The notes under the pieces are model-generated. The model did no database searches. It had not been told where the DNA came from and saw nothing but the letters and a program-made list of their open reading frames with translations. The position numbers and the translations under genes were made by a program. 64,000 nucleotides of DNA from Xanthomonas codiaei (GTDB lineage: Bacteria; Pseudomonadota; Gammaproteobacteria; Xanthomonadales; Xanthomonadaceae), in assembly GCF_002939785.1 (NCBI RefSeq), contig NZ_MDEC01000010.1:35467-99466 (forward strand), given 5' to 3'. Shown here piece by piece: positions 48,355 through 64,000 of this stretch; within the stretch, counting starts at the first letter, position 1; each line of letters opens with the position of its first letter.

Positions 48355-51048
48355 ATGAGTACGTACCACCTGCAACAGGTCTTTCGCCCCACTACCGTCG
48401 CGGTGGTGGGCGGCAGCCCGCGCGAGCGCTCGGCCGGGCGGGCGGTGGTGCGCAATCTGCGCGCGGCCGGCTTTCCCGGGCAGATCGGCTGGGTGAGCCC
48501 GCGCTACAGCGAGATCGATGGCGTGCGCACGGTGGCGCGGCTGACCGATCTGCCCTGGGTGCCCGACCTGGTGGTGATCACCGCACCGGCGCGCATCGTG
48601 CCGCGCATCGTCTCCATCGCCGCGCGGCGTGGGGTGGCGGCGGCAATCATCCTCACCGCGGGCCTGGGGCACGGCCCGGGTTCGCCGGCCGCGCGCATGG
48701 AGGCGGCTGCCCGCGCAAAAGGCCTGCGCATCCTCGGGCCGCACTGCCTGGGCGTGATCGCTCCGCATGCGCGGCTCAACGCCAGCATCGCCGCGCATTG
48801 CCCGCAGGCCGGCGATCTGGCGCTGATCTCCGAATCCAGCGCGATTGCTGCGGCGCTGGTGGAGTGGGGCGTGGCGCGTTCGGTGGGGTTTTCGGCAGTG
48901 GTGTCGCTGGGCGACACGCTGGATGTGGATTTCGGCGACCTGCTGGATTACTTCGCCACCGACTACCGCACCCGCGCGATCCTGCTGTATGTCGAACGCA
49001 TCGGCGATGCGCGCAAGTTCATGTCGGCTGCGCGTGCGGCCGCACGCGCCAAGCCGGTGGTGGTGGTCAAATCGGGGCGCCAGTTCCGCATCGATCCCAA
49101 TGCCGACACCCATGCCCAAGCGCTGGCCGGCTCGGATGCGGTGTACGGCGCCGCGTTCGCGCGTGCCGGCCTGTTGCGGGTAGGTGCGTTGGACGAATTG
49201 TTTGCCGCCGCCGAAACGCTGGGCCGGCTGGGCAGTTTCCCGGGCCGGCGGCTGGCCATCCTGAGCAACGGCGGCGGCGTGGGGCAGCTGGCGGTGGACC
49301 AGCTGGTGCTGCGCGGCGGCACCCTGGCCGAGCTGTCGCCCAAGACGCTGGAGCGGCTGGATCAATCGCTTCCCGAAGGCTGGTCGCGCAGCAATCCGGT
49401 GGACATCATCGTCGATGCCGATGGCGCGCGCTACGCCGCGGCGATCGAAGCCCTGCTGGACGATCCGGAGAACGATGCGTTGCTGGTGGTCAACGTGCCC
49501 ACCGCGTTCACCTCTTCGGCCGATGCGGCCAAGGCCTTGACCCGCGCGCTGGAGCAGCGCAACCGCTACCAGCGCGACAAGCCTGTGTTTGCGGTGTGGC
49601 TGGGCCAGGACGATGCGGCCATTGCCGCGCTCAATGCCGCGCGCGTGCCCACCTATGCCACCGAATCGGACGCGGTGCGCGGCTTCACCCACCTGGTGCG
49701 CTACCGCGAGGCGCAGGCGGCGTTGATGGAAACCCCTCCCAGCCTGCCGGAAGACTTCGTGGTGGATGCTGGCGTGGCGCGCACGCTGGTCGAAGAGGCG
49801 CTGGCCGCCGGCCGGCGCTGGCTGGACCCGGTGGCCACCAACCGGTTGCTGAGCGCCTACGGCATCCCGGTGGTGCCGCTGCAGGTGGCGGCCACCGCCA
49901 ACGAGGCCGCGTTGCTGGCCGACCCATTATTGGCCGTCGGCCGCACGGTCACCTTGAAGGTGTTGTCCAGCGAGATCGCGCACAAGTCCGATGTGGACGG
50001 CGTGCGCCTGAACCTGTCCAGCGTGGCGGCGGTGCGCGAAGCGGCCACCGGCATCCTGGCGCGTGCACGTGCCGCGCATCCTGCAGCGGCCATCGATGGG
50101 ATCATCGTGCAGCCCACCGTGCTGCGACCCAAGGCGCGCGAACTGATCGCCGGTATCGCCGACGATCCGGTGTTCGGCCCGGCCATCGTGTTCGGGCGTG
50201 GCGGTACTGCGGTGGAAGTCATCAACGACCGCGAACTCGCACTGCCGCCGCTGGATCTGCGCCTGGCCCACGAGCTGATCGGCCGCACCCGCGTCTCGCG
50301 CATCCTCAAGGCCTACCGCGACGTGCCGGCCGCCGACGAGCGCGCGGTGGCGCTGGTGCTGGTCAAGCTGGCGCAGCTGGCCGCCGACATCCCGGAAATC
50401 ACCGAGCTGGACATCAATCCGCTGCTGGCCGACCGCGACGGCGTGATTGCGCTGGACGCGCGCGTGGCGGTGGCGCCGGCGCGCAAGCTGCACAAGGGCC
50501 GTGGCCATCCGCGTTTTGCGATCTTTCCCTACCCGAAGGAATGGGAGCGCCAGATCGGCCTGGGCGATGGCACCCACGCACTGGTGCGCCCGGTGCGACC
50601 GGAAGACGACGCGCTGTTCCGCGCCTTCTTCGCCCGCGTCACCGACGAGGACCTGCGGCTGCGCTTCTTCCAGTCGGTCAAGCATTTCAGCCACGAATTC
50701 ATCGCCCGCCTGACCCAGCTCGACTACGCCCGCTCGATCGCGCTGGTGGCCATCGACCCCAGGACCGGCGACATGCTCGGCGCGGTACGCCTGCACGCCG
50801 ATGCCGACTACGAACGCGGCGAGTACGGCATCCTGATCCGTTCGGACCTCAAGGGTCACGGCATCGGCTGGCAGCTGATGCGCATCATGATCGAGTACGC
50901 CCGCTGGCTGGGCCTGAAAGTAATCGAAGGCCAGGTGCTGCGCGAGAACCGCACCATGCTGGCCATGTGCCAGAGCCTGGGTTTCGGGGTGCGCCCGGAT
51001 CCGGAGGATGCGAGCCTGATGGCGGTGACGCTGCCGGTGGACGGTTAG
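48355..51048 (+). CDS. patZ: Pat/PatZ-type protein lysine acetyltransferase
   Basis: 897 residues, as in E. coli PatZ (886). The first 700 resemble ADP-forming acyl-CoA synthetase: CoA-binding domain (PTTVAVVGGSPRERSAGRAV), succinyl-CoA-ligase-like domain (ILGPHCLGVIAPHARLNASI, LAILSNGGGVGQLAVD) and ATP-grasp part (VTLKVLSSEIAHKSDVDGVRLNL, ITELDINPLLAD). The last 170 are a GNAT acetyltransferase domain (VRPVRPEDDALFRAFFARV, LIRSDLKGHGIGWQLMRIM, NRTMLAMCQSLGF). Such enzymes acetylate lysines of metabolic enzymes such as acetyl-CoA synthetase using acetyl-CoA. No ribosome binding site is visible before the ATG. Confidence 0.92.
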   Translation: MSTYHLQQVFRPTTVAVVGGSPRERSAGRAVVRNLRAAGFPGQIGWVSPRYSEIDGVRTVARLTDLPWVPDLVVITAPARIVPRIVSIAARRGVAAAIILTAGLGHGPGSPAARMEAAARAKGLRILGPHCLGVIAPHARLNASIAAHCPQAGDLALISESSAIAAALVEWGVARSVGFSAVVSLGDTLDVDFGDLLDYFATDYRTRAILLYVERIGDARKFMSAARAAARAKPVVVVKSGRQFRIDPNADTHAQALAGSDAVYGAAFARAGLLRVGALDELFAAAETLGRLGSFPGRRLAILSNGGGVGQLAVDQLVLRGGTLAELSPKTLERLDQSLPEGWSRSNPVDIIVDADGARYAAAIEALLDDPENDALLVVNVPTAFTSSADAAKALTRALEQRNRYQRDKPVFAVWLGQDDAAIAALNAARVPTYATESDAVRGFTHLVRYREAQAALMETPPSLPEDFVVDAGVARTLVEEALAAGRRWLDPVATNRLLSAYGIPVVPLQVAATANEAALLADPLLAVGRTVTLKVLSSEIAHKSDVDGVRLNLSSVAAVREAATGILARARAAHPAAAIDGIIVQPTVLRPKARELIAGIADDPVFGPAIVFGRGGTAVEVINDRELALPPLDLRLAHELIGRTRVSRILKAYRDVPAADERAVALVLVKLAQLAADIPEITELDINPLLADRDGVIALDARVAVAPARKLHKGRGHPRFAIFPYPKEWERQIGLGDGTHALVRPVRPEDDALFRAFFARVTDEDLRLRFFQSVKHFSHEFIARLTQLDYARSIALVAIDPRTGDMLGAVRLHADADYERGEYGILIRSDLKGHGIGWQLMRIMIEYARWLGLKVIEGQVLRENRTMLAMCQSLGFGVRPDPEDASLMAVTLPVDG

Positions 51049-51673: not shown

Positions 51674-52711
51674 ATGTTTCGTGATTTCAGAATGTCGTTC
51701 GTCGTCACCGCGCTCTGTCTGGGTGTGGCGGCGTGGTGGGGGCACAATTCGAGCATGGGGATCTGGCAGGCCTTGTGGCTGTGCGCGGTGCTGAGCGTGC
51801 TCGAGGTCTCGCTGTCCTTCGACAATGCGGTGGTCAACGCCGGCGTGCTCAAGCACATGAGCGAATTCTGGCGGAAGCTGTTCCTGACCGTCGGTATCCT
51901 GATCGCGGTGTTCGGCATGCGCCTGGTGTTCCCGATCGTGATCGTGTCGGTGGCCACCGGCATGGGCCTGATGCCGGTGATCGACATGGCGCTGAACGAG
52001 CCGGACAAGTACAGCCAGGTGCTGACCGACCATTACCCCTCGATCGCGGCCTTCGGCGGCATGTTCCTGCTGCTGGTGTTCCTCAACTTCCTGTTCGATC
52101 GCGAGCGCGAGCTGCATTGGCTGGGCCCGGTGGAGCGCCTGGTCGGCAAGCTGGGCAAGGCCGATGCGATGTCGGTCATCGTCGCGGTGGCGGTGCTGCT
52201 GGGCACCAAGCTGTTCCTGCCGCAGGAGATCTTCCAGAGCGTGCTGTTCGCGGGCATGGGCGGCATCCTGCTGTACCTGCTGGTCGACAGCGTGGATGCG
52301 CTGTTCGAGTCCGAAGAGGACGAAGGTGGGGTCAATGTCGCCAAGCGCTCGGGCGTGGCCGCGTTCCTGTACCTGGAAGTGCTGGATGCCTCCTTCTCGT
52401 TCGACGGCGTGATCGGCGCGTTCGCCATCACCCGCGACGTGGTGATCATCATGCTGGGCCTGGCGATCGGCGCGATGTTTGTGCGCTCGATGACGGTTTA
52501 CCTGGTGCACAAGGGCACGCTGGACGAATTCGTGTTCCTGGAGCACGGCGCGCATTACGCCATCGGCGTGCTGGCGATCATCATGCTCATCGGCACCGTG
52601 CACCACGTGCCGGAAGTGTTGACCGGCCTGATCGGCGTGGCCTTCATCGTGGCATCGGTGTGGTCCTCGATTCGCTACCGCAAGCAGCACCCGGCCGGCG
52701 AAAGCGCCTGA
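51674..52711 (+). CDS. DUF475 / TerC-like integral membrane protein
   Basis: 345 residues with about nine hydrophobic segments. Two copies of the TerC-type acidic membrane motif are seen: LEVSLSFDNAVVNAGVL (near residue 44) and LEVLDASFSFDGVIGAFAI (near 235), where the Glu and Asp residues could bind a metal ion. A polar acidic loop (FESEEDEGGVN) separates the halves. DUF475 proteins belong to the TerC superfamily and often occur in ter clusters, here presumably as the membrane partner or metal exporter. First gene of the ter-type set. Confidence 0.9.
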   Translation: MFRDFRMSFVVTALCLGVAAWWGHNSSMGIWQALWLCAVLSVLEVSLSFDNAVVNAGVLKHMSEFWRKLFLTVGILIAVFGMRLVFPIVIVSVATGMGLMPVIDMALNEPDKYSQVLTDHYPSIAAFGGMFLLLVFLNFLFDRERELHWLGPVERLVGKLGKADAMSVIVAVAVLLGTKLFLPQEIFQSVLFAGMGGILLYLLVDSVDALFESEEDEGGVNVAKRSGVAAFLYLEVLDASFSFDGVIGAFAITRDVVIIMLGLAIGAMFVRSMTVYLVHKGTLDEFVFLEHGAHYAIGVLAIIMLIGTVHHVPEVLTGLIGVAFIVASVWSSIRYRKQHPAGESA

Positions 52712-52880
52712 GCCGGCCGCCGTTGCCTGCGTCCGGCAGGCAGCGGCGTTGCTGCGTCCGGGTGGCGGCTGCCCTACGGCATCGCTCGCGTGCGATGGCC
52801 ATGCCAGTCGCCGCCTGGCGTGGCCGCTGGCGCGCCGATCCGGTTCCTTCTTCCGCAGTTTCCCTCGACCAGGTGAGCTC

Positions 52881-53516
52881 ATGCGTCGTTTGCCCGTCTA
52901 TCTGCTTCTCGATACCTCCGGTTCCATGCGCGGCGAGCCGATCGCGGCGGTCAACGTGGGCCTGCGCGCCCTGGTGACCTCGTTGCGGCAGGATCCGTCG
53001 GCGTTGGAGAGCGTGCATATCTGTCTGATGACCTTCGATGCGGACGTGAAGACGATCCTGCCGCTGACCCCGTTGGACCAGCTGCAATTGCCCGAGATCA
53101 CCACGCCGGAGTCCGGTCCAACCATGCTCGGAAAGGCCTTGCAGCACGTCTGCGAACGGGTGGACCTGGAAGTGCGTCGTTCCAGCGAAGACGCCAAGGG
53201 CGACTGGGCGCCGCTGCTGTTCGTGATGACCGATGGCAGCCCTACCGATCTGCAGGTGTTCGAGGAGCAGATCCCCGAGCTGCGCAAGCGCAACTTCGCC
53301 AACATCATCGCCTGCGCGGCCGGCCCCAAGGCCAAGTCGACCTATCTGTCGATGTTCACCGCCAACGTGTTCGCGCTGGATACGCTGGACAGCGCCTCGT
53401 TCACCAGTTTCTTCAAGTGGGTGTCGGCGGCCGTCAGCGGCGGCAGCCGCAGCCAGGGCACGCCGGAAGGCACGGCGCTGCCGCCGCCGCCGAGCGAAAT
53501 CCAGCTGGTGCTGTAA
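52881..53516 (+). CDS. TerY-like von Willebrand A domain protein
   Basis: 211 residues, one VWA domain: MIDAS motif LLDTSGSMRGEP at residues about 8-19, the Thr/Ser segment SGPTMLGKAL and the Asp in FVMTDGSPTDLQ, so the metal site is complete. It ends in a short Pro-rich tail. TerY-type VWA proteins bind partner proteins through Mg2+ in ter systems. AGGTGAG precedes the ATG. A second, longer VWA protein follows 48 bp later. Confidence 0.9.
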   Translation: MRRLPVYLLLDTSGSMRGEPIAAVNVGLRALVTSLRQDPSALESVHICLMTFDADVKTILPLTPLDQLQLPEITTPESGPTMLGKALQHVCERVDLEVRRSSEDAKGDWAPLLFVMTDGSPTDLQVFEEQIPELRKRNFANIIACAAGPKAKSTYLSMFTANVFALDTLDSASFTSFFKWVSAAVSGGSRSQGTPEGTALPPPPSEIQLVL

Positions 53517-53564
53517 CCCATCGCCACCACCGAGTGAGCCGCTGTCTTCGTCCAGGAGTCTGAG

Positions 53565-54620
53565 ATGCGTCGCCTTCCGATCTATTTCCTGCTCGATGTC
53601 TCCGAGTCGATGATCGGGGAAAACCTCTATCGGCTGGAAGAAGGGCTGGCCCATATCGTGGCGACGCTGCGCACCGATCCGCACGCGCTGGAAACGGCCT
53701 GGATTTCCATCATTGCCTTTGCCGGGCAGGTGCGGCGGCTGTTGCCGCTGACCGAACTGACCAGCGTGGTGGTGCCCAGCCTGCCGGCGGGCGGCGGCAC
53801 CTCGCTGGGCCGGGCGATGAACTACCTGATGGACGAGGTGGATGCCTCGGTGCACCGCAATAGCGCCGAGCGCAAGGGCGACTGGAAGCCGATCGCGTTC
53901 CTGATCACCGATGGCAAGCCCACCGACGATATCGCCCCGGCGCTGTCGCGCTGGCAGCAGCAGTATGCAAGGCGCGTGTCGCTGGTGGCGGTGTCGATCG
54001 GGCGCAATGCCGACCTGGGCGTGCTCAACCAGTTCACCGATGCCGACAAGGTGCTGACCCTGGATGACAGCAGCGACGGCGCGTTCCAGCGCTTCATCGC
54101 CTGGGTCACGCAGTCGGTGCAGGCGCGCAGCCGCAGCGTGGGCGATGTGTCCAAGGAAGAGCAGCTGCCGGACGCGGATGTGTCGATCCTGAAAAAGCTC
54201 AACCTGGATAAGCCGCTCGAGCGCGTAGACGAGTCCAACGCGTATTTCGTCTCCAAGTGCCAGCGCAGCGAGTTGCCATATATCTCGCGCTACGAGCCGA
54301 TGCACCAATCCTTCGATGTCGGCAGCGCGCAGCTCAGTGCAACGACCTATCGGCTGGTGGGGTGCTATCCGGTCAGGAACGATTATTTCGAGATGTCCTC
54401 GGAAGCGCCGAACTTCGCCACGGTGGAGTCGGACCAGATCTTCGGCACGCCCAGTTGCCCGCACTGCGGCAACCGGATCGGATTTGCGATGTGTTCCTGC
54501 GGCAACACCTTCTGCGTTCCCGGCGAAGGCGAGCAGACCTGCCCGTGGTGCAAGCAGCGCGCCTACTTCGGCTGTTTTGCCGATGGAGAATCGGTGGAGA
54601 TTTCGCGTGCGCGGGGCTGA
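53565..54620 (+). CDS. TerY-like VWA protein with C-terminal zinc-ribbon domain
   Basis: 351 residues. The N-terminal VWA domain (about 1-190) has LLDVSESMIGEN, where DxSxS is kept, TSLGRAM and FLITDGKPTDD. From about 300 there is a TerY-C metal-binding region with Cys pairs: CPHCGNRIG, CSCGNTFC and CPWCKQRAYFGC. Domain and neighbours match the VWA/TerY-C proteins of ter clusters, thought to scaffold the kinase and phosphatase encoded next. The phosphatase gene begins 3 bp after its stop. Confidence 0.92.
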   Translation: MRRLPIYFLLDVSESMIGENLYRLEEGLAHIVATLRTDPHALETAWISIIAFAGQVRRLLPLTELTSVVVPSLPAGGGTSLGRAMNYLMDEVDASVHRNSAERKGDWKPIAFLITDGKPTDDIAPALSRWQQQYARRVSLVAVSIGRNADLGVLNQFTDADKVLTLDDSSDGAFQRFIAWVTQSVQARSRSVGDVSKEEQLPDADVSILKKLNLDKPLERVDESNAYFVSKCQRSELPYISRYEPMHQSFDVGSAQLSATTYRLVGCYPVRNDYFEMSSEAPNFATVESDQIFGTPSCPHCGNRIGFAMCSCGNTFCVPGEGEQTCPWCKQRAYFGCFADGESVEISRARG

Positions 54621-54623
54621 GTG

Positions 54624-56405
54624 ATGCCGCCACTGCCCCCACCGGCGCCGCCTGCGCAGGCGCAGGCCCACGCCGCCCTGGCCGAGTTGCTGGGCAGCTA
54701 TCTGCGCCAGCACGGCGTTGTACCGGAGCCGGCCCGGCTCCGGCACCTGCTTCAGGAAGCGCCGGTGCTGGAATTGCTGCATTGGCTCGATGCCACCGCA
54801 TCGCGCCTGGCGTCGCCGCTCGGCGAGGCATCGGCCTCCTCGCCGGAGCCGGGCGCTATGCCAGCCGCGACGGCGGCATCCATTGCACGCGACGCGCCAG
54901 CAATGGCGCCAACCGCATCCCGACCAGGCGATGTAGTTCCGGTGGAGTCATCAGCATCCAGTGCAGGCGACGTGGTACAGGTGGAGCCTGCGACATCCAG
55001 TCCAGGCGACGCGGCGCAGGCGGAGCCAGCGGCATCCGGCCCAGCCGATACGGTGCCGGTCTCTCCGTCAGCATCGGGCAGCGCGGTCGAACATGCAGCG
55101 AGCACGGCGTCCTCCGTTGCGACCGACGCGGCGCTGTTTGTAGCGCCTGCCTCGAGTGCGCCCGCAACGGCGCTGCGCTGGCGTTTTGCCAATGCCACCG
55201 CAGGGAGCGCGTATGTCGGGCAGACCGCGCCTGTCAGCGATCCGCAGCGTCCGGCGCAGTTGTACCGCCTGATCGCCGTGGAAGGGCTGCAGGGAAGCGG
55301 CCTGCGGTTCGATGCGGCCAGCGGCGTGCTTTCCGGCGTGCCCAGCGCAGCCACCGCGACCGGCGAAGAGATGCATTTTGCCGCAGGCTTCCTGCCGCTC
55401 GATGCGGCGGCCGGCGCCCCGTTGCAGGCCGGCGTGGCCAGCCTGCTGGTCAATCCGGATCCGCGCGCGCTGTGGAAGCAACGCGAGCCAGATGCCGCCC
55501 TGGGCCTGCGCAAACCGCATACCGCAACGGCGCATGCGCGGATCGACGGTGCCTACGCGATCGCTGCCAGCGTGCGCGGGCGCTCGCATGCCAATGCCGG
55601 CAGCTTCCGCGAAGACGACCTCGCCATTGCCACCGATCGCGACGCCCGCTGGCTGGTCTGCGCGGTGGCCGATGGCGCCGGATCGGCACCGCTGTCGCGA
55701 CGCGGCTCGGAGTTGCTGACCCGGCACGTCGTCGCCACGCTGGCGGCGCATCTGGAGGGCGTCGAATTCTGGGCGCGCCAGCAGGGGCTGCAGTGGCAGC
55801 ACCACGCCGACCTGCTGCCGCGGCTGCAACCGCGCTTGCTGGACGCGATGCAGGCCAGCCTGGCATCGGCCAGCCAGGCATTGCTGGGCCACGCCAGCCT
55901 GCTTGGCGTCGACGAAGGCGCGCTGGCCTCGACCCTGATGCTGACGGCGGTGCGTCCCTGCGGCGCGCAGTCGCTGGTGCTGAGTTACTGGATCGGCGAT
56001 GGCGCGGCGGCCACCTACGATGTCGACTCCGGCGCCCTGCAATTGCTGGGGCAGGCCGACGCCGGCGAGTACTCCGGGCAGACCCGGTTCTTTCTTTCCG
56101 ATGCATTGGCCGGCAATACGCCGGCGGCCGTGCAGGCGCGCATGCGCTGCGTGTGGCTGCCTGCCGGTGCCAGGGTGATCCTGATGAGCGATGGCGTGTC
56201 CGATCCCAAGTTCGGTACCGAGCGCGCCTTGCAGGATCCGGCGCACTGGCAGCGGTGGTGGCAGGCCGATCTCGCGCCGCCGCTATCGGCCGTGCAGGAC
56301 CTCGCGGCCCTGCCGCAGGCGTTGGTGGAGTATCTGGGCTTCTGGTACCCGGGCGAACACGACGATCGCACCTTGCTGATACTCCAGACCGAGCGCGCAC
56401 CATGA
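54624..56405 (+). CDS. PP2C-type protein phosphatase with repetitive linker
   Basis: 593 residues. A short helical N-terminus (about 1-50) is followed by an Ala/Ser/Pro/Glu linker holding four 13-residue repeats (54924-55079). A beta-rich region with LRFDAASGVLSGVPSAATAT (about 185-280) looks like a cadherin/Ig-type fold. The C-terminal phosphatase (about 300-590) has NAGSFREDDLAI, VCAVADGAGS, ILMSDGVSDPKF and EHDDRTLL, which supply the PP2C metal-binding Asp residues. It should reverse the action of the kinase encoded next, whose ATG overlaps its stop (ATGA). Confidence 0.9.
   Translation: MPPLPPPAPPAQAQAHAALAELLGSYLRQHGVVPEPARLRHLLQEAPVLELLHWLDATASRLASPLGEASASSPEPGAMPAATAASIARDAPAMAPTASRPGDVVPVESSASSAGDVVQVEPATSSPGDAAQAEPAASGPADTVPVSPSASGSAVEHAASTASSVATDAALFVAPASSAPATALRWRFANATAGSAYVGQTAPVSDPQRPAQLYRLIAVEGLQGSGLRFDAASGVLSGVPSAATATGEEMHFAAGFLPLDAAAGAPLQAGVASLLVNPDPRALWKQREPDAALGLRKPHTATAHARIDGAYAIAASVRGRSHANAGSFREDDLAIATDRDARWLVCAVADGAGSAPLSRRGSELLTRHVVATLAAHLEGVEFWARQQGLQWQHHADLLPRLQPRLLDAMQASLASASQALLGHASLLGVDEGALASTLMLTAVRPCGAQSLVLSYWIGDGAAATYDVDSGALQLLGQADAGEYSGQTRFFLSDALAGNTPAAVQARMRCVWLPAGARVILMSDGVSDPKFGTERALQDPAHWQRWWQADLAPPLSAVQDLAALPQALVEYLGFWYPGEHDDRTLLILQTERAP
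54924..55079 (+). repeat. Four 39-bp coding repeats in the phosphatase linker
   Basis: Units at 54924, 54963, 55002 and 55041 encode PGDVVPVESSASS, AGDVVQVEPATSS, PGDAAQAEPAASG and PADTVPVSPSASG. The in-frame 39-bp unit means that gain or loss changes only linker length. Confidence 0.88.
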
Positions 56406-57934
56406 CCGCTGCCATCGTCCGCACCACGGCCCACGATGGCAGCACGGTCGAGTTCTACGATCAGCTGCGTGGCAGCGGCGGGTTGAAGGACTGCTATTTC
56501 AGCGTGGATGGCCGCTATGTGGTGCTGTTCTTTCGCCAGCCCCCCGATGCCAATGTGCGTGAGCGCATCGCCAATATCGTTGGGCGCTTTCGCGACGGCA
56601 TCTTCAACCAGGTGGGCGGCGAGTACTGGAGCGGCATGTTCTGCTGGCCGCAACGCACGCTGGAATGGAACGGCCGCTTCGGCCTGGTCGCGCCGATGTA
56701 TGCGCGGCACTTCTTCTTCGAGCACGGCTCGCGCAACGGCGATGCGCTGCAGATCGCCGGGCGCGAGAAGGAAGGCAAATGGTTCGCCTCGGCCAATAAT
56801 CGCAGCAAGTACCTGGATCCGCGCGAGCTGGGCAACTGGGCCAGCCATCTGCGTATCTGCCTGTTGATCGCGCGCGCGGTGCGCCGCCTGCACATGGCCG
56901 GCCTGGCGCATTCGGATCTGTCTTACAAGAACGTGCTGGTCGACCCGGTCGGCGGCAACGCCTGCATCATCGATATCGATGGACTGGTGGTGCCAGGAAA
57001 ATATCCGCCGGATGTGGTGGGCACGCCGGACTTCATCGCGCCGGAGGTCGTAGCCACCGCCAGCCTGCCCAAGCACGATCCGCAGCGGCGCCTGCCGTCG
57101 ATCCAGACCGATCTGCATGCGCTGGCCACGCTGATCTACATGTATCTGCTCTACCGCCATCCGCTGCGCGGCGGGAAGGTGCACGACGCCGATGCCACGC
57201 GCGATGAAGAACTGGCAATGGGCGAGCGCGCGCTGTTCGTGGAAGATCCGCACGATGCCTCCAACCGGGTGCGGCTGAGCGATGTGCGCAGCAGCGAGCT
57301 GCCCTGGGCCGATGCCGCCACGCGCCCGTACACCCTGACCGGCCCCTACCTGGCACCGCTGTTCCTGCGCGCATTCACCACCGGCCTGCGCGATCCGCAG
57401 CAACGCCCGCAGGCCTCGGAATGGGAAGACGCGCTGGTACGCACCGTCGATCTGCTGCAGCCCTGCAGCAATGCCCGCTGCGAGCAGGGCTGGTACGTGT
57501 TCGACAATACCTCGCGGCCGCGTTGCCCGTTCTGCGCAACGCCGTATCCCAATGCGCTGCCGGTGCTGGACCTGTATTTCTCCACGCACACGCCGGGCCA
57601 GTTTCGCCCGGAAAACCACCGCCTGGTGGTCTACACCGGGCAGTCGTTGTTTCCCTGGCACGTCAATCGCCATGTAGCACCCAACGAGAAGCTGGCCGTC
57701 GAGCAGCGGCGACGGGTGGGCTACTTCGTGTTGCACGAGGGCCATTGGTATCTGGTCAACGAGGCGATGCCCGAGCTCTACGACGCCACCGCTGGCGCCC
57801 TGGTGCCGATCGGTGAAAAAGTGGAGCTCAGCCAGGGACGGCAACTGCTGCTGTCGCGTGCGGAGGGCGGGCGTCTGGTCCATGTGCAACTGGTGCTGCC
57901 CGATGCCGGCAGCGGCGCCGTTGCGGTTGACTAG
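56402..57934 (+). CDS. Atypical Ser/Thr protein kinase with zinc ribbon
   Basis: 510 residues. The kinase domain keeps the catalytic loop HSDLSYKNVLVD (H170-S-D172, N177), a metal site reading DIDG (191-194) where DFG is usual, and GTPDFIAPEVV as activation-segment end. The expected VAxK lysine strand reads YVVLFFRQP, with Arg, so the ATP site is non-standard. A zinc ribbon follows (C355-x4-C360 and C375-x2-C378), then a beta-rich C-terminal region. Related kinases with zinc ribbons are known from ter clusters. It is coupled to the phosphatase gene, suggesting a phosphorylation switch acting on the TerD/VWA proteins; the target is not known. Confidence 0.88.
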   Translation: MTAAIVRTTAHDGSTVEFYDQLRGSGGLKDCYFSVDGRYVVLFFRQPPDANVRERIANIVGRFRDGIFNQVGGEYWSGMFCWPQRTLEWNGRFGLVAPMYARHFFFEHGSRNGDALQIAGREKEGKWFASANNRSKYLDPRELGNWASHLRICLLIARAVRRLHMAGLAHSDLSYKNVLVDPVGGNACIIDIDGLVVPGKYPPDVVGTPDFIAPEVVATASLPKHDPQRRLPSIQTDLHALATLIYMYLLYRHPLRGGKVHDADATRDEELAMGERALFVEDPHDASNRVRLSDVRSSELPWADAATRPYTLTGPYLAPLFLRAFTTGLRDPQQRPQASEWEDALVRTVDLLQPCSNARCEQGWYVFDNTSRPRCPFCATPYPNALPVLDLYFSTHTPGQFRPENHRLVVYTGQSLFPWHVNRHVAPNEKLAVEQRRRVGYFVLHEGHWYLVNEAMPELYDATAGALVPIGEKVELSQGRQLLLSRAEGGRLVHVQLVLPDAGSGAVAVD

Positions 57935-58031
57935 ACCTGCAGGGCAGGTCACTCTTTCGACCTGCTGATCGCAGGCCGGTTGCGCCAATGCCGCCGTGCA
58001 GCGCAGATGGGCCAGGCCAGGGACAGGGGCA

Positions 58032-59237
58032 GTGACGACTCTACAGATCGGACAAAACATAGCCCTGGAGGGCGACCGCCTCGACGCACAGATCACGCTG
58101 ACGGGTGTGCCTTCCGGCATGGAGTTGGATGTCAGTGCCTTCGTGCTGGGCGCCCAGGGCCAGGTCCTGGATGACGGCGCATTCGTGTTCTATGGGCAGC
58201 CCAGCTTTCAGGCCGGCGCGGTCACCGTCGATGCCAGGGCGCGGCGGGTCGGCATGCAGCTGTCGGCGTTGCCGGCGCAGGCCGAGCGGGTGGCTGTGGC
58301 GATCACCATCGATCAGGGCATGCGCCGGGCGCAGCGCTTCGGGCAGCTGCAGCAGCTGACGTTGGCCGTGACCGCCGGCAGCCAGAGCTGCAGCTTCGCC
58401 CCACCGCTGGTAGGCATGGCAGAAACCGCGTTGATCCTTGCCGAGGTCTACCGGCGCAACGGGCAGTGGAAGCTGCGCGCGGTGGGGCAGGGATTTACCG
58501 GCGGGCTCGGCCCGCTGGCCAGGCATTTTGGCGTGGAGGTGGATGACGATCCGGACGCGGCCACGGCCGCGCCGCCGCCGCCCACGCCTGCCGTCCCGCC
58601 GCCGGTTCCTGCAACGCCGCCGCCACCGCCTGCTGCTCCGCCACCGGCGCCGTCGGTCAACCTGTCCAAGATCGTGTTGGAAAAGTCCAAGCCGGTCGCG
58701 CTGGAGAAGGCCTCCGGCAAGTTTGGCGAGATCGTGGTCAACCTGCGCTGGAGTCGCGGTGGCGGGATGTTCTCGCGCGCCATCGATCTGGACCTGGGCG
58801 CCATGGTGGAACTGCAGGACGGCAACAAGACCGTCGTCCAGGCGCTCGGTGGGAATTTCGGCAGCCTGGTGCAGATGCCGTACGTCAAGCTGATGGGCGA
58901 CGATCGCAGCGGCAGCTCCGGCCAGGGCGAGTTCCTGCACCTCAATGGCGACGAATGGGCGCGCATCAAGCGCGTGCTGATCTTCGCCTTCATCTACGAG
59001 GGCGTTCCCAACTGGTCCAATGCCAATGGCGTGGTGACCATCCGCACGCCGGGCCAGCCCGAGCTGGAGGCGCGCCTGGACAGCCCCAACAATCGCGACG
59101 GTATGTGCGCCATCGCCATGCTGGAAAACAGCAACGGCACCATTCGTGCAACCAAACAGGTGGACTATTTCACCGGGCACGACACCATGGACATGCGGTT
59201 CGGCTTTGGGTTCGAGTGGAGAGCCGCTCGCAAATAG
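58032..59237 (+). CDS. TerD-TerA fusion protein
   Basis: 401 residues from a GTG start preceded by AGGGGCA. The N-terminal domain (about 1-165) is TerD-like: ALEGDRLDAQITLTGVPSGMELDVSAFVLG and VGQGFTGGLGPLARHFGVEV. A Pro-rich linker (about 175-210) follows, and then a TerA-like domain with VNLRWSRG, SRAIDLDLGAMVEL, LMGDDRSGSSGQGEFLHLNG and FIYEGVPNW. TerD domains bind calcium through acidic loops; in this N-terminal copy the usual DxDDEQ loop is not evident, so it may not bind metal. TerA and TerD are separate genes in most ter operons. Longer starts are open upstream. Confidence 0.85.
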   Translation: MTTLQIGQNIALEGDRLDAQITLTGVPSGMELDVSAFVLGAQGQVLDDGAFVFYGQPSFQAGAVTVDARARRVGMQLSALPAQAERVAVAITIDQGMRRAQRFGQLQQLTLAVTAGSQSCSFAPPLVGMAETALILAEVYRRNGQWKLRAVGQGFTGGLGPLARHFGVEVDDDPDAATAAPPPPTPAVPPPVPATPPPPPAAPPPAPSVNLSKIVLEKSKPVALEKASGKFGEIVVNLRWSRGGGMFSRAIDLDLGAMVELQDGNKTVVQALGGNFGSLVQMPYVKLMGDDRSGSSGQGEFLHLNGDEWARIKRVLIFAFIYEGVPNWSNANGVVTIRTPGQPELEARLDSPNNRDGMCAIAMLENSNGTIRATKQVDYFTGHDTMDMRFGFGFEWRAARK

Positions 59238-59348
59238 CCTGCGTGCCGTGTCTGGCGGGCGCTGCCATCGGCCTGCACACGATCAATCGCGTTTCCCGGG
59301 AACCGCAAGGTTCCGATTCTTACCCCGCAACAATCTAAGGAGTGCAGT

Positions 59349-59927
59349 ATGGGCGTCAGTCTTTCCAAGGGCGGTAATGTCAATCTCAGCAAGGAAGCAC
59401 CTGGCCTGAGCGAGGTCGTCGTGGGTCTGGGTTGGGATCCGCGTGCCACCGACGGCAGCGAATTCGACCTGGATGCCAGCGCGTTCCTGCTCAAGCCGGA
59501 CGGCAAGGTGCCGGACGACAGCAGCTTCATCTTCTACAACAACAAGACCTCCGCCGATGGCTCGGTCGTGCACCAGGGCGACAACCGGTCCGGCGCGGGC
59601 GACGGCGACGACGAGCAGATCGCGGTCTCGCTCAACGGCGTGCCGGCGGCGGTGGACAAGATCTCCTTCGCGGTGACCATCCACGAGGCCGAAGGCCGTC
59701 GCCAGTCGTTCGGCATGGTGGGCAACGCGTACATCCGCGTCGTCAACAAGGCCGACAACAAGGAACTGGCGCGCTACGACCTGACCGAAGACGGCTCCAC
59801 CGAGACGGCGATGATTTTCGGCGAGCTGTACCGCAACGGTGCCGACTGGAAGTTCCGCGCCGTCGGCCAGGGCTTCAAGGGTGGCCTGGGCCCGCTGGCC
59901 GCCAACTACGGCGTCAACATCGGCTGA
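59349..59927 (+). CDS. terD: TerD family calcium-binding stress protein
   Basis: 192 residues, the standard TerD/TerE length. Signatures: [38 protein letters not shown], the acidic calcium loop [19 protein letters not shown] and [18 protein letters not shown]. TerD proteins bind two Ca2+ and are thought to gather at the membrane with TerC-like partners under stress. A strong AAGGAGT site precedes the ATG. I use terD for the family; terE is equally possible. Confidence 0.93.
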
Positions 59928-60053
59928 TGCCGGCACGGCCGTTGCCTGTGCGCAGCGGCCATCGAGCGTGATCAACAGTGGCCGCCCGGATGCCCATTCG
60001 CGCGGCCACCTTCACACCGGGCCTGGCCCGGTGACGACTCAAGGAGAGTGTGG

Positions 60054-60635
60054 ATGAGCGTTAGTTTGAGCAAGGGACAGCGGATCTCGCTGAGCAAGGA
60101 AGCCGGCACACAGTTGACCAAGGTGGTCATGGGGCTGGGGTGGGATGCCAAGAAGACCAAGGGCTTCTTCGGATTCGGCCAGCGCGACCAATCGATCGAC
60201 CTGGACGCCTCGTGCCTGATGTTCAACGATGCCAATCAGCTGGTGGACCAGATCTGGTTCCAGCAATTGAATTCGCGCGACGGCAGCGTCCGGCACACCG
60301 GCGACAACCGGACCGGCGACGGCGATGGCGATGACGAGCAGATCGTCGTGCAGCTGGACAAGATTCCCACCGGCGTCAAGAGCCTGGTCTTCATCGTCAA
60401 CAGCTTCACTGGCCAGAGTTTTGCGGAAATCGAAAACGCGTTCTGCCGGCTGGTCGATGCCAATGGCAACAAGGAAGTCGCACGCTACAACCTGTCGTGC
60501 CAGGGCAACCACACCGCCCAGCTGATGGCCAAGCTGTATCGCCACGAAAACGACTGGAAGTTGCACGCCATCGGCGAATCCTGCTCCGGCCGCACGTTCC
60601 ACGACATGCTGCCGGTCATCAACGGCCAGCTGTAA
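60054..60635 (+). CDS. terZ: TerD/TerZ-type stress protein paralogue
   Basis: 193 residues, clearly a TerD-domain protein: VSLSKGQRISLSKEAG, VMGLGWDAKKTKGFFGFG, SIDLDASCLMF, the acidic loop [20 protein letters not shown] and WKLHAIGESCSGRTFHDMLP. The insertion with GFFGFG and the SCSGRTFHDMLP end resemble TerZ more than TerD. AAGGAG lies upstream. Calcium binding is likely because the acidic loop is intact. It is the last gene before a hairpin that may separate the Ter proteins from the biosynthetic genes. Confidence 0.9.
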   Translation: MSVSLSKGQRISLSKEAGTQLTKVVMGLGWDAKKTKGFFGFGQRDQSIDLDASCLMFNDANQLVDQIWFQQLNSRDGSVRHTGDNRTGDGDGDDEQIVVQLDKIPTGVKSLVFIVNSFTGQSFAEIENAFCRLVDANGNKEVARYNLSCQGNHTAQLMAKLYRHENDWKLHAIGESCSGRTFHDMLPVINGQL

Positions 60636-60642
60636 TCCTCCA

Positions 60643-60676
60643 GGACGGTGGCCGCGCGCGAGGCGCCGTCCTTCTT
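60643..60676 (+). terminator. Hairpin with short T-rich end after terZ
   Basis: GGACGG (60643-60648) pairs with CCGTCC (60666-60671), extended by a TG / CG step, and TTCTT follows. It lies 8 bp after the terZ stop. The T stretch is short, so it may be only partly effective. Confidence 0.5.
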
Positions 60677-60866
60677 GGAGCGGCGAACAATGCGTCGCGA
60701 GCGGTCGTGTGGGTGCGGATGGCGCACTCGGAACCGGCGTGTATGCGTGGTCCATGCCGATTCCAAGTACCGACCGCGCCCGCCCTGGTGGTGAGCGCAG
60801 TCGTGTTGTCAGCTGTTCTTCGTCGGCGCCATGCGCGGGGCCGTAGTCCATCTTTCGAGTATCCGT

Positions 60867-61925
60867 ATGTCACTTCCCCACGCGCGCGTCTGGTTCAACC
60901 GGCACTACGCGACCATTGCCCGCATCATCGATCATCTACGCGGCGAAGCCGAGCCGTTGCCGATCTGGACCTGCGTGTCGCATCGCCAGGAAAACTTCCG
61001 CGGTTTTGCCCGTGCCGACCATGCCTTGCTCGAACCGGCGGGCCTGAGCCCGGAGGCGTACCTGCAGTGGTGCTATCAGGTGGTGCAACAGCTGCAGATC
61101 ACCCACCTGGTACCCGGCTACGAGCAGAGCCTGCTGACCAGCCACCGCGCCGAGTTCGCGGCGCTGGGCTGCCAGATCGTGCACGCCGCGCCTGCGGATA
61201 TCCTGCCCAACCTGCATCACAAGCAATGGGTGTACGCGGCGGTCGCCGGACTGGTGCCGCTGCCGGACTATCGTTACGTCACCACGCTGCAACAGGCGGT
61301 GGAGGCGATCGCGCAGCTGGGCGTCGATGGCGCGGTCTGCGTCAAGCCCACCGTGTCGGTGTACGGCAAGGGGTTCTATCGGCTGGTGGAGGGGATCGAG
61401 CCGAGTACCTATGCCTGCAGCACGCAGGAATGGATCGGCCGGATGGAACGCCTGCCCGAGTTCGAACCGCATCTGGTCATGCTCTATCTGCCCGGCGTGG
61501 AGTACAGCGTGGACATCGCTGCGCGCGATGGCGACGTGCTGGCCTGCGTGGTGCGCCAGAAGGATCCCAACAGCAAGGTGCAGCAGCTGTCCATGCGCGC
61601 GGACCTGGTCGGCTATGCCACGGCGATGGTGAAGCGCTTCGGCGCCAACGGGCTGATCAACGTGCAGTTCAAGGACGACATCGATGGCGCGCCGATGTTG
61701 CTGGAGATCAATCCGCGTGCGGCCGGCGGGATCGGCATGAGCTGCATGTCCGGGATCAATCTTCCGCATGTAGCGTATCGCGCCTGCATCTTTCCCGAGT
61801 TGCCGGTACAGATTCCGACACCGCGGCTGGGCATTCGCGTCACCGAGATCTCGCTGGCGGTTGAGTTGCCGGACGCGCAGCCCTTGCCTGGCACGGTGAT
61901 GCCGCAGGTTGCGGTCGACGCATGA
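60867..61925 (+). CDS. ATP-grasp ligase of the ter-linked biosynthetic block
   Basis: 352 residues. ATP-grasp signs: DILPNLHHKQWVYAAV, the nucleotide-binding VCVKPTVSVYGKGFYRL, the metal site MLLEINPRAAGGIGMSCM and SVDIAARDG. It would join a carboxylate to an amine or thiol through an acyl-phosphate. In ter clusters an ATP-grasp enzyme sits beside a phosphoribosyltransferase, an HAD enzyme and a StiP protein, thought to make a nucleoside-like or peptide-like compound. Its last codons overlap the next gene (ATGA). The ATG at 60867 has no clear ribosome binding site; the frame is open 12 codons further up. Confidence 0.87.
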   Translation: MSLPHARVWFNRHYATIARIIDHLRGEAEPLPIWTCVSHRQENFRGFARADHALLEPAGLSPEAYLQWCYQVVQQLQITHLVPGYEQSLLTSHRAEFAALGCQIVHAAPADILPNLHHKQWVYAAVAGLVPLPDYRYVTTLQQAVEAIAQLGVDGAVCVKPTVSVYGKGFYRLVEGIEPSTYACSTQEWIGRMERLPEFEPHLVMLYLPGVEYSVDIAARDGDVLACVVRQKDPNSKVQQLSMRADLVGYATAMVKRFGANGLINVQFKDDIDGAPMLLEINPRAAGGIGMSCMSGINLPHVAYRACIFPELPVQIPTPRLGIRVTEISLAVELPDAQPLPGTVMPQVAVDA

Positions 61926-63091
61926 GCACGCTGCAAGTGAGCTTGCCCACCGGCACCTTGTACTGTGCCGGGCAACCGGGCAATACGCGTGCACTGACCG
62001 ATCTTTGCGGCTTCGGCGCGCGGCGCAATCCCAAGCGCGGCTTCGTGTTCGTCTCCAAGGTGCTGGGCAAGCACTGGCCCGCTTCCCCGGCGACGATGGC
62101 GCAGCTGCAGGCGGAGCTGGCGGCGCAGATTCCGCTGCCGGCCGGTGAGATGGTCCTGTTCGTGGCGATGGCCGAAACCGCCACCGGCCTGGGCCACGGC
62201 GTGTTCGAAGCGTTCCTGCAACGCGACGGCAGCCAGGCGCTGTTGCTGCAGACCACGCGCTATCCGCTCGACGGCGCGCAGGTGCTGCGCTTCGAGGAAG
62301 AACACAGCCATGCCACCCAGCAGTTTCTCTACCTGCCCGAAGCGCCCGCGCTGCGCGCAGCGCTGGAGCGGGTGAGCACGGTGGTGATGGTGGATGACGA
62401 GGCGACCTCGGGCCGGACCTTCTTGAACCTGGCGATCGCCCTGCGCAGCGTCTGCCCGCGCCTGCGAGCGCTGTACCCGGTGGTGCTGACCGATTTCTCC
62501 GAAGGCCGGGTACAGGCGCTGCTGTCGGCGCTGCCGGGCATCGACGAGGTGGCGCCGCTGTCGCTGTGGTCGGGCACGCACCGGTTCGAGCGTGACCCTG
62601 CTGCGGCGCTGGTGCCTGCCCCGGTGGCCTACGCCCCGGTGGCCTGTCGCCGCCAGCATGTGTCCGCCTTTACCGCACGGCTGGGGCTTGCCGCTGCCAT
62701 CGCGCTACCCGATGCGCTGGTGCAGGCCTGCCACGCGGCGCTGGATGGCCGGCCGGTGCTGGTGATCGGCACCGGCGAATGCATGTATCCGGCACAACGG
62801 CTGGCGCAGGCGCTGGAAGCGCTGGGTCATGCGGTGGCGGTGCAATCGACCACACGTTCGCCGCTGATGCAGGCCGGTGCCATCGAAGACATCGCCCTGG
62901 TGGAAGACGTCTATGGCGAGGGAATTCCCAATTACCTGTACAACCTGACGCGCTCGGCCGGTGCGGTGCGGGTGGTGGTGCACGAAAGTCGCGAGCGCGC
63001 CTGCGTGGAGCGGTTGCTGCAGCAGCTGCAGGCGATCGAAGTGGATCTTGCCCAGCAGCGCGTCAGCACGCCCATGCAGGCGGTGGCCTAG
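61922..63091 (+). CDS. Phosphoribosyltransferase-like protein of the ter-linked block (TRSP type)
   Basis: 389 residues. The PRPP-binding loop is VVMVDDEATSGRTFLNLA (near residue 155), a type I phosphoribosyltransferase signature; an earlier VAMAETATGLGHGVFEAF and a C-terminal half with VLVIGTGECMYPAQRLAQAL, STTRSPLM and DVYGEGIPNYLYNL match the two-part protein (PRTase plus TRSP domain) known from ter clusters. It probably attaches or removes a ribose-phosphate on a base. The next gene begins immediately after its stop. Confidence 0.88.
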   Translation: MSTLQVSLPTGTLYCAGQPGNTRALTDLCGFGARRNPKRGFVFVSKVLGKHWPASPATMAQLQAELAAQIPLPAGEMVLFVAMAETATGLGHGVFEAFLQRDGSQALLLQTTRYPLDGAQVLRFEEEHSHATQQFLYLPEAPALRAALERVSTVVMVDDEATSGRTFLNLAIALRSVCPRLRALYPVVLTDFSEGRVQALLSALPGIDEVAPLSLWSGTHRFERDPAAALVPAPVAYAPVACRRQHVSAFTARLGLAAAIALPDALVQACHAALDGRPVLVIGTGECMYPAQRLAQALEALGHAVAVQSTTRSPLMQAGAIEDIALVEDVYGEGIPNYLYNLTRSAGAVRVVVHESRERACVERLLQQLQAIEVDLAQQRVSTPMQAVA

Positions 63092-63847
63092 ATGTATCAG
63101 GTGGCCCTGGTCGATCTGGACGACACCTTGTTCTCGTCGCTGCGCAAGCAAAAAGACGCGCAGGCGCTGCAGCCGGCAGCGTTGTCGGTCGATGGTGGCG
63201 TGGTGAGCTATACCTCGCCGCGTCAGCGCGCGTTCGCGCAGTGGTTGCAGCGCGCCGACCTGGTGGTCCCGGTCACCGCGCGCACGCTCGACACCTTCGC
63301 GCGCGTGCTGCTGCCATTCGACGGACCGGCGATCGTGGCCCACGGTGCCACCATCGTCGATGCGCAGCGGCAGGTCGATCCGGTGTGGGCGGCCACGGTG
63401 CACGCCCGCATGCAGACCGAGTTGCCGGCGTTACAGCAGCTGCAGCAGGCCTTGTCGGCGCAGTTCGGCGCCGCGCTGGAGGTCAGCATCGCCGGCGCAC
63501 CGCAACAGCCGGCCTATCTGGTGGCGCGCGAGCCATCGCGCGACGAACAGGTGGTGCGAAGGATTTCCGATGAGGTCATCGCGCCATGGGTGGCGCAGCA
63601 TCCCGGCTATACCCATCACGTCAACGGCCGCAATCTGGCGGTGCTGCCGCCGTGCGTGGACAAGCGGCTGGCGGTGGCCTACCTGCTGGAATCGCTGCGG
63701 CGCCAGCATGGCGAGCTGTTCGTGGTCGGTGCCGGCGACAGCATCACCGACCTGCCGTTCCTGTCGCTGTGCGATGTGGCGATCCTGCCCACCGGCTCGC
63801 AGGCCTGGGCACAGCTGCGCACGCACGCGCACGAGCCCTGCGCATGA
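63092..63847 (+). CDS. HAD-superfamily hydrolase of the ter-linked block
   Basis: 251 residues. Motif I is VALVDLDDTLFSSL, motif II Thr in VVPVTARTLDTF, motif III Lys in CVDKRLAVAYLLE, motif IV VVGAGDSITDLPFL; with a cap domain between, it resembles Cof-type sugar or nucleotide phosphatases. It should remove a phosphate from the intermediate made by the neighbours. The start follows the previous stop directly and its own stop overlaps the next ATG. Confidence 0.9.
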   Translation: MYQVALVDLDDTLFSSLRKQKDAQALQPAALSVDGGVVSYTSPRQRAFAQWLQRADLVVPVTARTLDTFARVLLPFDGPAIVAHGATIVDAQRQVDPVWAATVHARMQTELPALQQLQQALSAQFGAALEVSIAGAPQQPAYLVAREPSRDEQVVRRISDEVIAPWVAQHPGYTHHVNGRNLAVLPPCVDKRLAVAYLLESLRRQHGELFVVGAGDSITDLPFLSLCDVAILPTGSQAWAQLRTHAHEPCA

Positions 63848-64000
63848 CCTTGGCCGGATTCTCGGGCAGTTATGCGCCCGGCGATGTGACCTTTCTGCTG
63901 ACGCAGATCCAGGTCGCGCCGATGCAGGATCTGCAGGAAAAAGAGCGCCTGATCCAGGCCGGCCACGCGCATTACTCGGAAATGCTGACGCCGGAGCAGG
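63844..64000 (+). CDS. StiP-like protein, 3' end missing
   Basis: The 52 visible residues, MTLAGFSGSYAPGDVTFLL followed by TQIQVAPMQDLQEKERLIQ and an AGHAHYSEMLTPEQ end, match the start of proteins annotated as cysteine protease StiP in ter clusters. The frame leaves the window open. Its ATG overlaps the HAD stop, so it belongs to the same transcript. The enzymatic assignment cannot be checked because the rest is absent. Confidence 0.8.
   Translation, partial: MTLAGFSGSYAPGDVTFLLTQIQVAPMQDLQEKERLIQAGHAHYSEMLTPEQ

What the first reader, a model, noticed from the sequence alone, without database searches (positions are those of the whole stretch)
51674..64000. A complete ter-type signalling-plus-biosynthesis island
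In one direction, with several start/stop overlaps, the region encodes a TerC-like membrane protein, two TerY-type VWA proteins, a PP2C phosphatase, a kinase, three TerD-domain proteins and then ATP-grasp, phosphoribosyltransferase-like, HAD and StiP-like proteins. Seen: the domains and order. Known: comparative work has predicted that ter systems link a stress-sensing complex to synthesis of a nucleoside-like compound. Inferred: the kinase-phosphatase pair switches TerD complexes at the membrane and the last four genes make a signal or protective metabolite. The product, trigger and function in a plant pathogen are not established as far as I know.
Basis: partly seen in the sequence, partly recalled or inferred. 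Interest (0 to 1): 0.78.

Follow-up and report, generated by a model that had tools for sequence, protein, structure and literature searches.

The report
Ter island with dedicated membrane partner
Four of 35 Xanthomonas species genomes carry, next to the ribonucleotide reductase genes, a 13-kilobase gene island of the known Ter stress-response kind together with their own distinct version of a membrane protein that all 35 have, which suggests that the two likely work as one unit, predicted to sense stress and to make a small ribose-containing molecule.

Summary
The genes are real. The set is a TerY-P signalling triad with a second VWA gene, three TerD proteins and the "Ter biosynthetic module" predicted in 2012. 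It is not complete in the window: StiP runs over the edge and a fifth enzyme (C-C bond lyase) follows, before nrdAB. In 35 Xanthomonas genomes StiP, TerY_C and TerD are all-or-none (4 of 35). The "TerC-like" first gene (DUF475) is core: 29 of 31 non-carriers have it 0.7-1.8 kb before nrdA, with no room for the island; in two a contig ends there. But carriers hold a separate DUF475 allele clade (support 100/100), while both flanking genes reject a carrier clade (AU p 0.0012 and 4e-40), with excess fixed amino-acid differences: island and allele behave as one unit. DUF475 also sits in ter clusters of unrelated genera. StiP is predicted to be a phosphoribosyltransferase, not a cysteine protease. 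The HAD's solved relative, called "trehalose phosphatase", is encoded in a P. aeruginosa plasmid ter cluster. The triad is optional: TerY_C accompanies StiP in 3 of 12 StiP genomes across the phylum. Product, trigger and phenotype remain untested.

The parts
48355..51048 (+). left flank: acyl-CoA synthetase-GNAT type protein, core gene, not part of the system
   Evidence: Pfam CoA-binding, ATP-grasp_5 and acetyltransferase domains; upstream of DUF475 in 18 of 18 non-carriers with enough sequence
51674..52711 (+). DUF475 (TerC-related) membrane protein; carrier-specific allele of a core gene
   Evidence: PF04332 2e-114, PF03741 3e-20; tree support 100/100; homologues in 35 of 80 StiP loci
52881..53516 (+). 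first VWA protein (DxSxS read from the translation, no TerY_C)
   Evidence: PF00092 2e-11
53565..54620 (+). TerY: VWA + TerY_C metal-binding domain
   Evidence: PF15616 1e-39, PF00092 1e-13
54621..56405 (+). PP2C phosphatase with variable repeat linker in the N-terminal half
   Evidence: PF13672 6e-32; length variation among carriers
56402..57934 (+). Ser/Thr-kinase-like protein, C-terminal CX4C...CX2C zinc-ribbon-like stretch
   Evidence: PF00069 2e-8; motif read from the translation
58032..59237 (+). TerD domain + second TerD/TerA-like C-terminal half
   Evidence: PF02342 5e-37 on residues 3-164; the C-terminal label is recall
59349..59927 (+). TerD protein
   Evidence: PF02342 1.5e-84
60054..60635 (+). 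TerD protein
   Evidence: PF02342 8e-53
60831..61925 (+). ATP-grasp ligase (ATPgrasp_Ter)
   Evidence: PF15632 1.6e-37
61922..63091 (+). PRTase_2 + TRSP: APRT-like phosphoribosyltransferase
63092..63847 (+). HAD phosphatase related to solved 'trehalose phosphatase' 6d3v/6cj0
   Evidence: E 4.7e-34
63844..64000 (+). StiP (second PRTase-fold enzyme + L7Ae/PELOTA-like domain); continues to 64941 beyond the window (L005:4311-5408)
   Evidence: PF11202 7e-95, PF15608 2e-19; PRTase fold

Best explanation
A 13-kb island that sits between a core DUF475 (TerC-related) membrane gene and nrdAB encodes a VWA-VWA-PP2C-kinase set, three TerD proteins and five proteins of enzyme families, and it likely acts as a Ter stress-response unit in which phosphorylation is predicted to switch a TerD/DUF475 membrane complex and so control synthesis of a ribosylated, nucleoside-like metabolite. 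Shown: gene content and order; all-or-none presence of StiP, TerY_C and TerD in 4 of 35 Xanthomonas genomes; purifying selection on every island gene; a DUF475 allele exclusive to carriers although both flanking genes are not; PRTase folds (predicted with high confidence) for both StiP and PRTase_2; no invariant cysteine in StiP; and a solved HAD relative that is encoded inside another ter cluster. Inferred: the triad reads metal or damage through the VWA/TerY_C domains; kinase and PP2C set the state of TerD; DUF475 is the dedicated membrane/metal partner; the two PRTases use PRPP, the HAD removes the 5-phosphate, and the ATP-grasp enzyme and the CitE-like C-C lyase build or trim the acceptor.
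Against: No experiment or metabolite. The triad and the biosynthetic module are separable: both in 3 of 12 StiP and 3 of 5 TerY_C genomes. Four carriers may be as few as two independent lineages, and no genome-wide species tree was built. Between G000 and G007 island genes differ more at synonymous sites (dS 0.25-0.59) than flanks and DUF475 (0.22-0.31), so recent spread of one island copy is not supported; ancient alleles or separate imports must be assumed. PRTase folds do not fix the acceptor. A hairpin between TerD3 and the ATP-grasp gene, conserved by eye in the carriers, may separate two transcription units.
Confidence: 0.55

Rival explanations
1. The island is primarily anti-phage defence: the TerY-P triad is the effector-controlling core and the metabolite is a defence messenger.
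For: A paper held reports TerY-P in P. aeruginosa as protective against phage (PMC10889362, passages); the CoCoNuT paper says TerY-P-like modules, with an OB-fold in place of the zinc ribbon, function as stand-alone defence (PMC11090510, passages). Patchy 4 of 35 distribution.
Against: Of 9 cluster proteins scanned, PADLOC models hit only the kinase (generic models, best E 1.5e-5) and, at E 0.0085, the first VWA protein. Island at a fixed chromosomal site with host-like GC; purifying selection and a deep allele split rather than rapid turnover.
Confidence: 0.25
2. It is a metal-homeostasis system: DUF475 exports or delivers Mn or another metal, TerD and VWA proteins buffer it, and the enzymes are accessory.
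For: TerC proteins MeeF/MeeY have Mn efflux activity and are implicated in metalating exported enzymes in B. subtilis (PMC10550928, passages); K. pneumoniae terC contributes to tellurite and zinc resistance (PMC12054061, title and passages).
Against: Non-carriers keep DUF475 without the island, so its basic role does not need it. The Rfam search of 50900-64000 showed no Mn riboswitch. In another K. pneumoniae study resistance to metal and oxygen-radical stress was independent of TerC (PMC9933665, abstract). Five enzymes would be unexplained.
Confidence: 0.25
3. The carrier-specific DUF475 allele is mere hitch-hiking: it is physically adjacent and was dragged along when the block recombined, without functional partnership.
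For: Adjacent gene; the homology break lies at its 3' end. Divergence between alleles could reflect an old or foreign origin of the block.
Against: DUF475 is also clustered with TerD and the same enzymes in Janthinobacterium, Azospirillum, Croceicoccus, Streptomyces and G113. Excess fixed replacements; but the MK-like test assumes independent sites, and its p-value is nominal.
Confidence: 0.3
4. The HAD and neighbours belong to trehalose or other sugar metabolism rather than to a nucleoside-like product.
For: Its solved relative is named trehalose phosphatase, and a paper held tests an extrachromosomal P. aeruginosa TPP as an enzyme (PMC6838324, passages); that this TPP is the crystallised protein is recalled.
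Against: That relative is encoded between a PRTase and StiP in a ter cluster, with no trehalose synthase among the 20 annotated features of the stretch (the plasmid gene tables are incomplete). Substrate promiscuity is common in HAD enzymes (recalled).
Confidence: 0.06

Closest known systems
Ter-dependent stress response systems, biosynthetic branch (Anantharaman, Iyer, Aravind 2012, 10.1039/c2mb25239b; not held, known here through citing papers, Pfam names and recall)
   Same: ATPgrasp_Ter, PRTase_2+TRSP, HAD, StiP+PELOTA_1, C-C bond lyase next to TerD genes
   Different: membrane gene is DUF475; a TerY-P triad with a second VWA in the same island; no TerB or TelA hit among the 13 Pfam-scanned cluster proteins; island tied to one allele of a core gene
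TerY-P triad (VWA + PP2C + kinase-zinc ribbon; PMC11090510)
   Same: VWA, PP2C, kinase with C-terminal cysteine-rich stretch, adjacent and overlapping
   Different: two VWA genes; joined to TerD and metabolite genes rather than to restriction/helicase genes
Plasmid ter cluster of P. aeruginosa CP109686
   Same: ATP-grasp, PRTase, HAD, StiP, HpcH/HpaI lyase, TerD, TerC
   Different: on a conjugative plasmid, has TerB and a TerC/Alx-family protein and a second HAD; no TerY-P triad listed in the stretch
Hib capsule polymerase Bcs3 CriT/CrpP (PMC10299916)
   Different: O-ribosylation of a capsule polymer; single multi-enzyme chain; Z tied with PyrR/HGPRT, so only a chemical analogy; that 8a0m is Bcs3 is recalled (its title says capsular polysaccharide synthesis multienzyme)

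Membership tests
Ter biosynthetic module | ATPgrasp_Ter, PRTase_2+TRSP, StiP+PELOTA_1 and C-C_Bond_Lyase genes together | tested here: met
   all over the Pfam cut-offs, in one run of overlapping or abutting genes
Ter biosynthetic module | linkage to TerD genes | tested here: met
   three TerD genes directly upstream; in relatives TerD in 63 of 80 StiP loci, 44 of the 46 of 20 kb or more
Ter biosynthetic module | makes a nucleoside-like metabolite | not testable with these tools
   no chemistry available
TerY-P triad | TerY-type VWA, PP2C and kinase adjacent | tested here: met
TerY-P triad | kinase fused C-terminally to a zinc ribbon | tested here: inconclusive
   CX4C...CX2C stretch read from the translation; no Pfam domain scored there
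Known anti-phage defence system | match to a curated PADLOC model set | tested here: inconclusive
   9 of 13 cluster proteins scanned: generic kinase models and one E 0.0085 VWA hit only; whether the library holds a TerY-P set was not checked
Classical terZABCDEF operon | TerC of the PF03741 type in the cluster | tested here: met
   only distantly: DUF475 at 73 bits, cut-off 27.8; best family is PF04332 at 383 bits
Classical terZABCDEF operon | TerB gene in the cluster | tested here: not met
   no TerB hit among the 13 cluster proteins scanned with Pfam
StiP as cysteine protease (its Pfam name) | conserved catalytic cysteine | tested here: not met
   no Cys among the invariant or nearly invariant columns of 32 homologues
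Phosphoribosyltransferase (StiP) | PRTase fold with PRPP-loop-like motif | tested here: met

The most novel reading that the evidence does not exclude
The nrdAB-side locus of Xanthomonas is an ancient two-state 'supergene': one haplotype is a whole Ter signalling-plus-biosynthesis island with a co-adapted DUF475 membrane protein, the other an island-free haplotype whose DUF475 is a re-purposed orphan of a lost Ter system; the two haplotypes split before the sampled species radiated and have since been swapped as units by homologous recombination.
Probability: 0.35. Interest if true: 0.68.

Novelty: new variant of a known kind. Interest (0 to 1): 0.52.

Why it matters
The function of ter systems has been open for decades. 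Three handles come out of this window. First, a natural experiment: related species with and without the island, with an empty site and a switched allele of one core membrane gene, which names DUF475 as the likely Ter membrane partner and gives a clean genetic test. Second, an annotation correction: StiP is predicted to be a PRPP-type transferase, not a protease; homologues are on 2,567 of 72,556 plasmid records, and all six rows listed carry the protease label. Third, one enzyme of the enigmatic module already has a family member with solved structures under the name trehalose phosphatase, so its true substrate can be sought directly.

Tried and rejected
Recent horizontal transfer of the island among carriers: not supported. 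Against G007 and G028 island dS mostly exceeds flank dS (0.25-0.59 and 0.36-0.67 against 0.22-0.33); against G017 they are alike (0.15-0.24 against 0.18-0.28) (the figures leave out the separately computed PP2C catalytic part). Plasmid or phage origin: no plasmid record covers more than 4% of 52720-63990 at DNA level; phage records hold only 29-36% StiP relatives, three records of which two are the same phage. Mn riboswitch before DUF475: none in the Rfam search; the only hit was sX9. Sigma-70 promoters: none found, 1.3 expected by chance; terminator-like sites 7 against 5.7 expected, uninformative. Sequence search of PDB with single ATP-grasp, PRTase_2 or StiP proteins: nothing useful; with profiles, StiP's C-terminus matched L7Ae proteins (best E 0.0014) and PRTase_2 matched PRTases weakly (best E 0.0086). 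Capsule-type ribosyltransferase as a membership claim for StiP: not made, Z tied with other PRTases. The absence of proteases from the fold lists is not used as proof.

Paper searches for novelty. In one search none of the 25 listed papers (of 1,206 with at least two terms) held DUF475. This does not show that the link is unpublished; the 2012 founding paper is not held.
Full report
WHERE IT IS. The window is part of contig C10 of a 5.04-Mb genome. Its genus is Xanthomonas: two same-genus carriers, G017 and G028, have contigs whose lengths match the named records of X. floridensis (NZ_LXNG01000003.1, 151,894 bases) and X. pisi (NZ_JPLE01000022.1, 64,348 bases). The cluster continues past the window: StiP ends at 64941 and a C-C bond lyase (PF15617, E 2e-84) occupies 64934-65809, followed by nrdA and nrdB (the nrdA and nrdB names are recalled from the translations).

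GENE CONTENT. Pfam scans give DUF475/TerC, VWA, VWA+TerY_C, PP2C, kinase, TerD x3, ATPgrasp_Ter, PRTase_2+TRSP, HAD (no Pfam hit), StiP+PELOTA_1 and C-C_Bond_Lyase. Several junctions abut or overlap by 4-8 bases. A fourth TerD protein, with a TerF-type vWA, lies on contig C2.

ALL OR NONE IN THE GENUS. StiP, TerY_C and TerD were each searched in 35 Xanthomonas genomes. Each is in 4 of 35, the same four (G000, G007, G017, G028); G028 is only 81% complete. The TerF-type gene is in G000, G017 and G028, not in G007; none of the 31 others has any TerD match. In 247 family genomes, which sample only part of the genus, StiP is in 3 and TerD in 4: G000, G007, G113 of another genus, and a 29-residue TerD fragment in G041. 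In 398 phylum genomes StiP passes the cut-off in 12, TerY_C in 5, both in 3 (G000, G597, G364), there within 10 kb of each other (a further 4 and 2 genomes had matches under the cut-off). Four carriers may be only two independent lineages.

THE EMPTY SITE. nrdA was located in 35 of 35 genomes, DUF475 in 35 of 35. For 20 of 31 non-carriers the region before nrdA was fetched; two contigs ended too soon (G010, G015), and the other 18 show acyl-CoA synthetase-DUF475-nrdA with no island. For the remaining 11 non-carriers the match coordinates (distances worked out by hand) put DUF475 0.7-1.8 kb from nrdA. Homology of the window to non-carriers stops at about 52,690, at the end of DUF475, and in G025, G027, G016, G013 and G011 resumes at about 66,190, so the island is about 13.5 kb. 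GC is like the surroundings.

A LOCKED ALLELE. In DUF475 the 4 carriers are one side of a branch against 18 non-carriers (bootstrap/SH-aLRT 100/100); with outgroups the two classes are reciprocally monophyletic, with modest support (0.84/0.80 protein, 0.92/0.79 DNA). For the left flank (3 carriers; the fetched X. pisi stretch matches only 46 residues of that gene) and for nrdA (4 carriers) a carrier clade is rejected (p-AU 0.0012 and 4e-40). No genome-wide species tree was built. Between classes median dN/dS of DUF475 is 0.168 against 0.043 (carriers) and 0.075 (non-carriers) within them; fixed codons 19 replacement and 12 synonymous against 50 and 248 polymorphic (p 2.6e-7); flanks 1/1 and 0/0. 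The p-value is nominal: sites are linked and classes uneven. The carriers' sequence before DUF475 also differs from that of the 5 non-carriers compared, which resemble each other. Against a simple recent spread: island dS between G000 and G007 is 0.25-0.59, flanks and DUF475 0.22-0.31; against G017 island and flanks are alike. Identity to outgroup DUF475 hardly differs between the classes, so which class changed more is open.

DUF475 AS THE TER MEMBRANE COMPONENT. TerD is in 63 (44 of 46), the C-C lyase in 76 (46), PRTase_2 in 73 (45), the HAD in 55 by single-sequence search (28) and 78 by profile, ATP-grasp in 39 (22), the kinase in 5 (3). Many loci are cut by contig ends. In G113 DUF475 heads DUF475-TerD-TerD-TerD-ATP-grasp-PRTase-HAD-StiP-lyase. 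All 35 Xanthomonas genomes carry a separate, much stronger TerC match elsewhere. DUF475 with at least 55% identity was found in 3 of 54 family genera sampled, 149 genomes.

MECHANISM. From the literature: TerY-P triads are hypothesised to be metal-sensing phosphorylation-dependent switches (PMC11090510, passages), and the Ter system is described as nucleoside/nucleotide-derivative biosynthesis, ligand-binding TerB/TerD and membrane TerC parts (PMC7824862, passages). The most economical reading here is the same, with DUF475 as membrane partner and two PRPP enzymes plus a phosphatase giving a ribosylated product. A PRTase-HAD pair that transfers ribose-5-phosphate and then dephosphorylates it is described for Hib capsule synthesis (PMC10299916, passages). 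Sequence relationship to that enzyme was not shown, so this is analogy only.

VERDICT. A good member of a known but poorly understood kind, with a new twist (an allele-locked core membrane gene beside an all-or-none island) and two annotation corrections that make the long-standing question testable.

Noticed in passing
window 60682-60755 (-): Rfam 'sRNA sX9' matches in the TerD3/ATP-grasp gap (51 bits, E 7e-7). The family has 9-98 matches per genome in all 35 Xanthomonas genomes, 94 in this one (at most 98 candidates scored, so lower bounds), so it behaves as a dispersed repeat. The other carriers gave no blastn match; the gap is similarly long in G017 but short in G007 and G028.
   Followed up: partly
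window about 60642-60672 (+): A GC-rich hairpin just after the third TerD gene is conserved by eye in all four carriers, possibly separating two transcription units; the terminator scan did not flag it.
   Followed up: partly
window 54621-55570 (+): The N-terminal half of the PP2C protein has a variable-length repeat linker (X. floridensis copy longer, G007 and X. pisi shorter) and a stretch resembling a bacterial Ig-like (He_PIG) motif (recalled resemblance; Pfam gave no hit).
   Followed up: no
L006:9295-10761, L019, L021: The unlinked TerD+vWA (TerF-type) gene follows a YaeF/YiiX-type C92 peptidase gene in G000; in G028 neighbouring genes of the region are present but TerF sits at another place among them.
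   Followed up: partly
L020 (G017 contig C27): X. floridensis has a fifth, divergent TerD protein on another contig (34% to TerF over 187 residues).
   Followed up: no
L018 (X. pisi) left of DUF475: Only 46 residues (850-895) of the acyl-CoA synthetase flank are found in the fetched stretch of X. pisi, so its left junction is rearranged or misassembled.
   Followed up: no
L183 (G113): A ter cluster in another genus of the family has VWA-TerD-VWA-VWA divergent from DUF475-TerD x3-biosynthesis; its lyase ORF appears split between two frames.
   Followed up: no
L184 (CP109686, P. aeruginosa plasmid): Two IS1182-family transposase genes lie inside the plasmid ter cluster.
   Followed up: no
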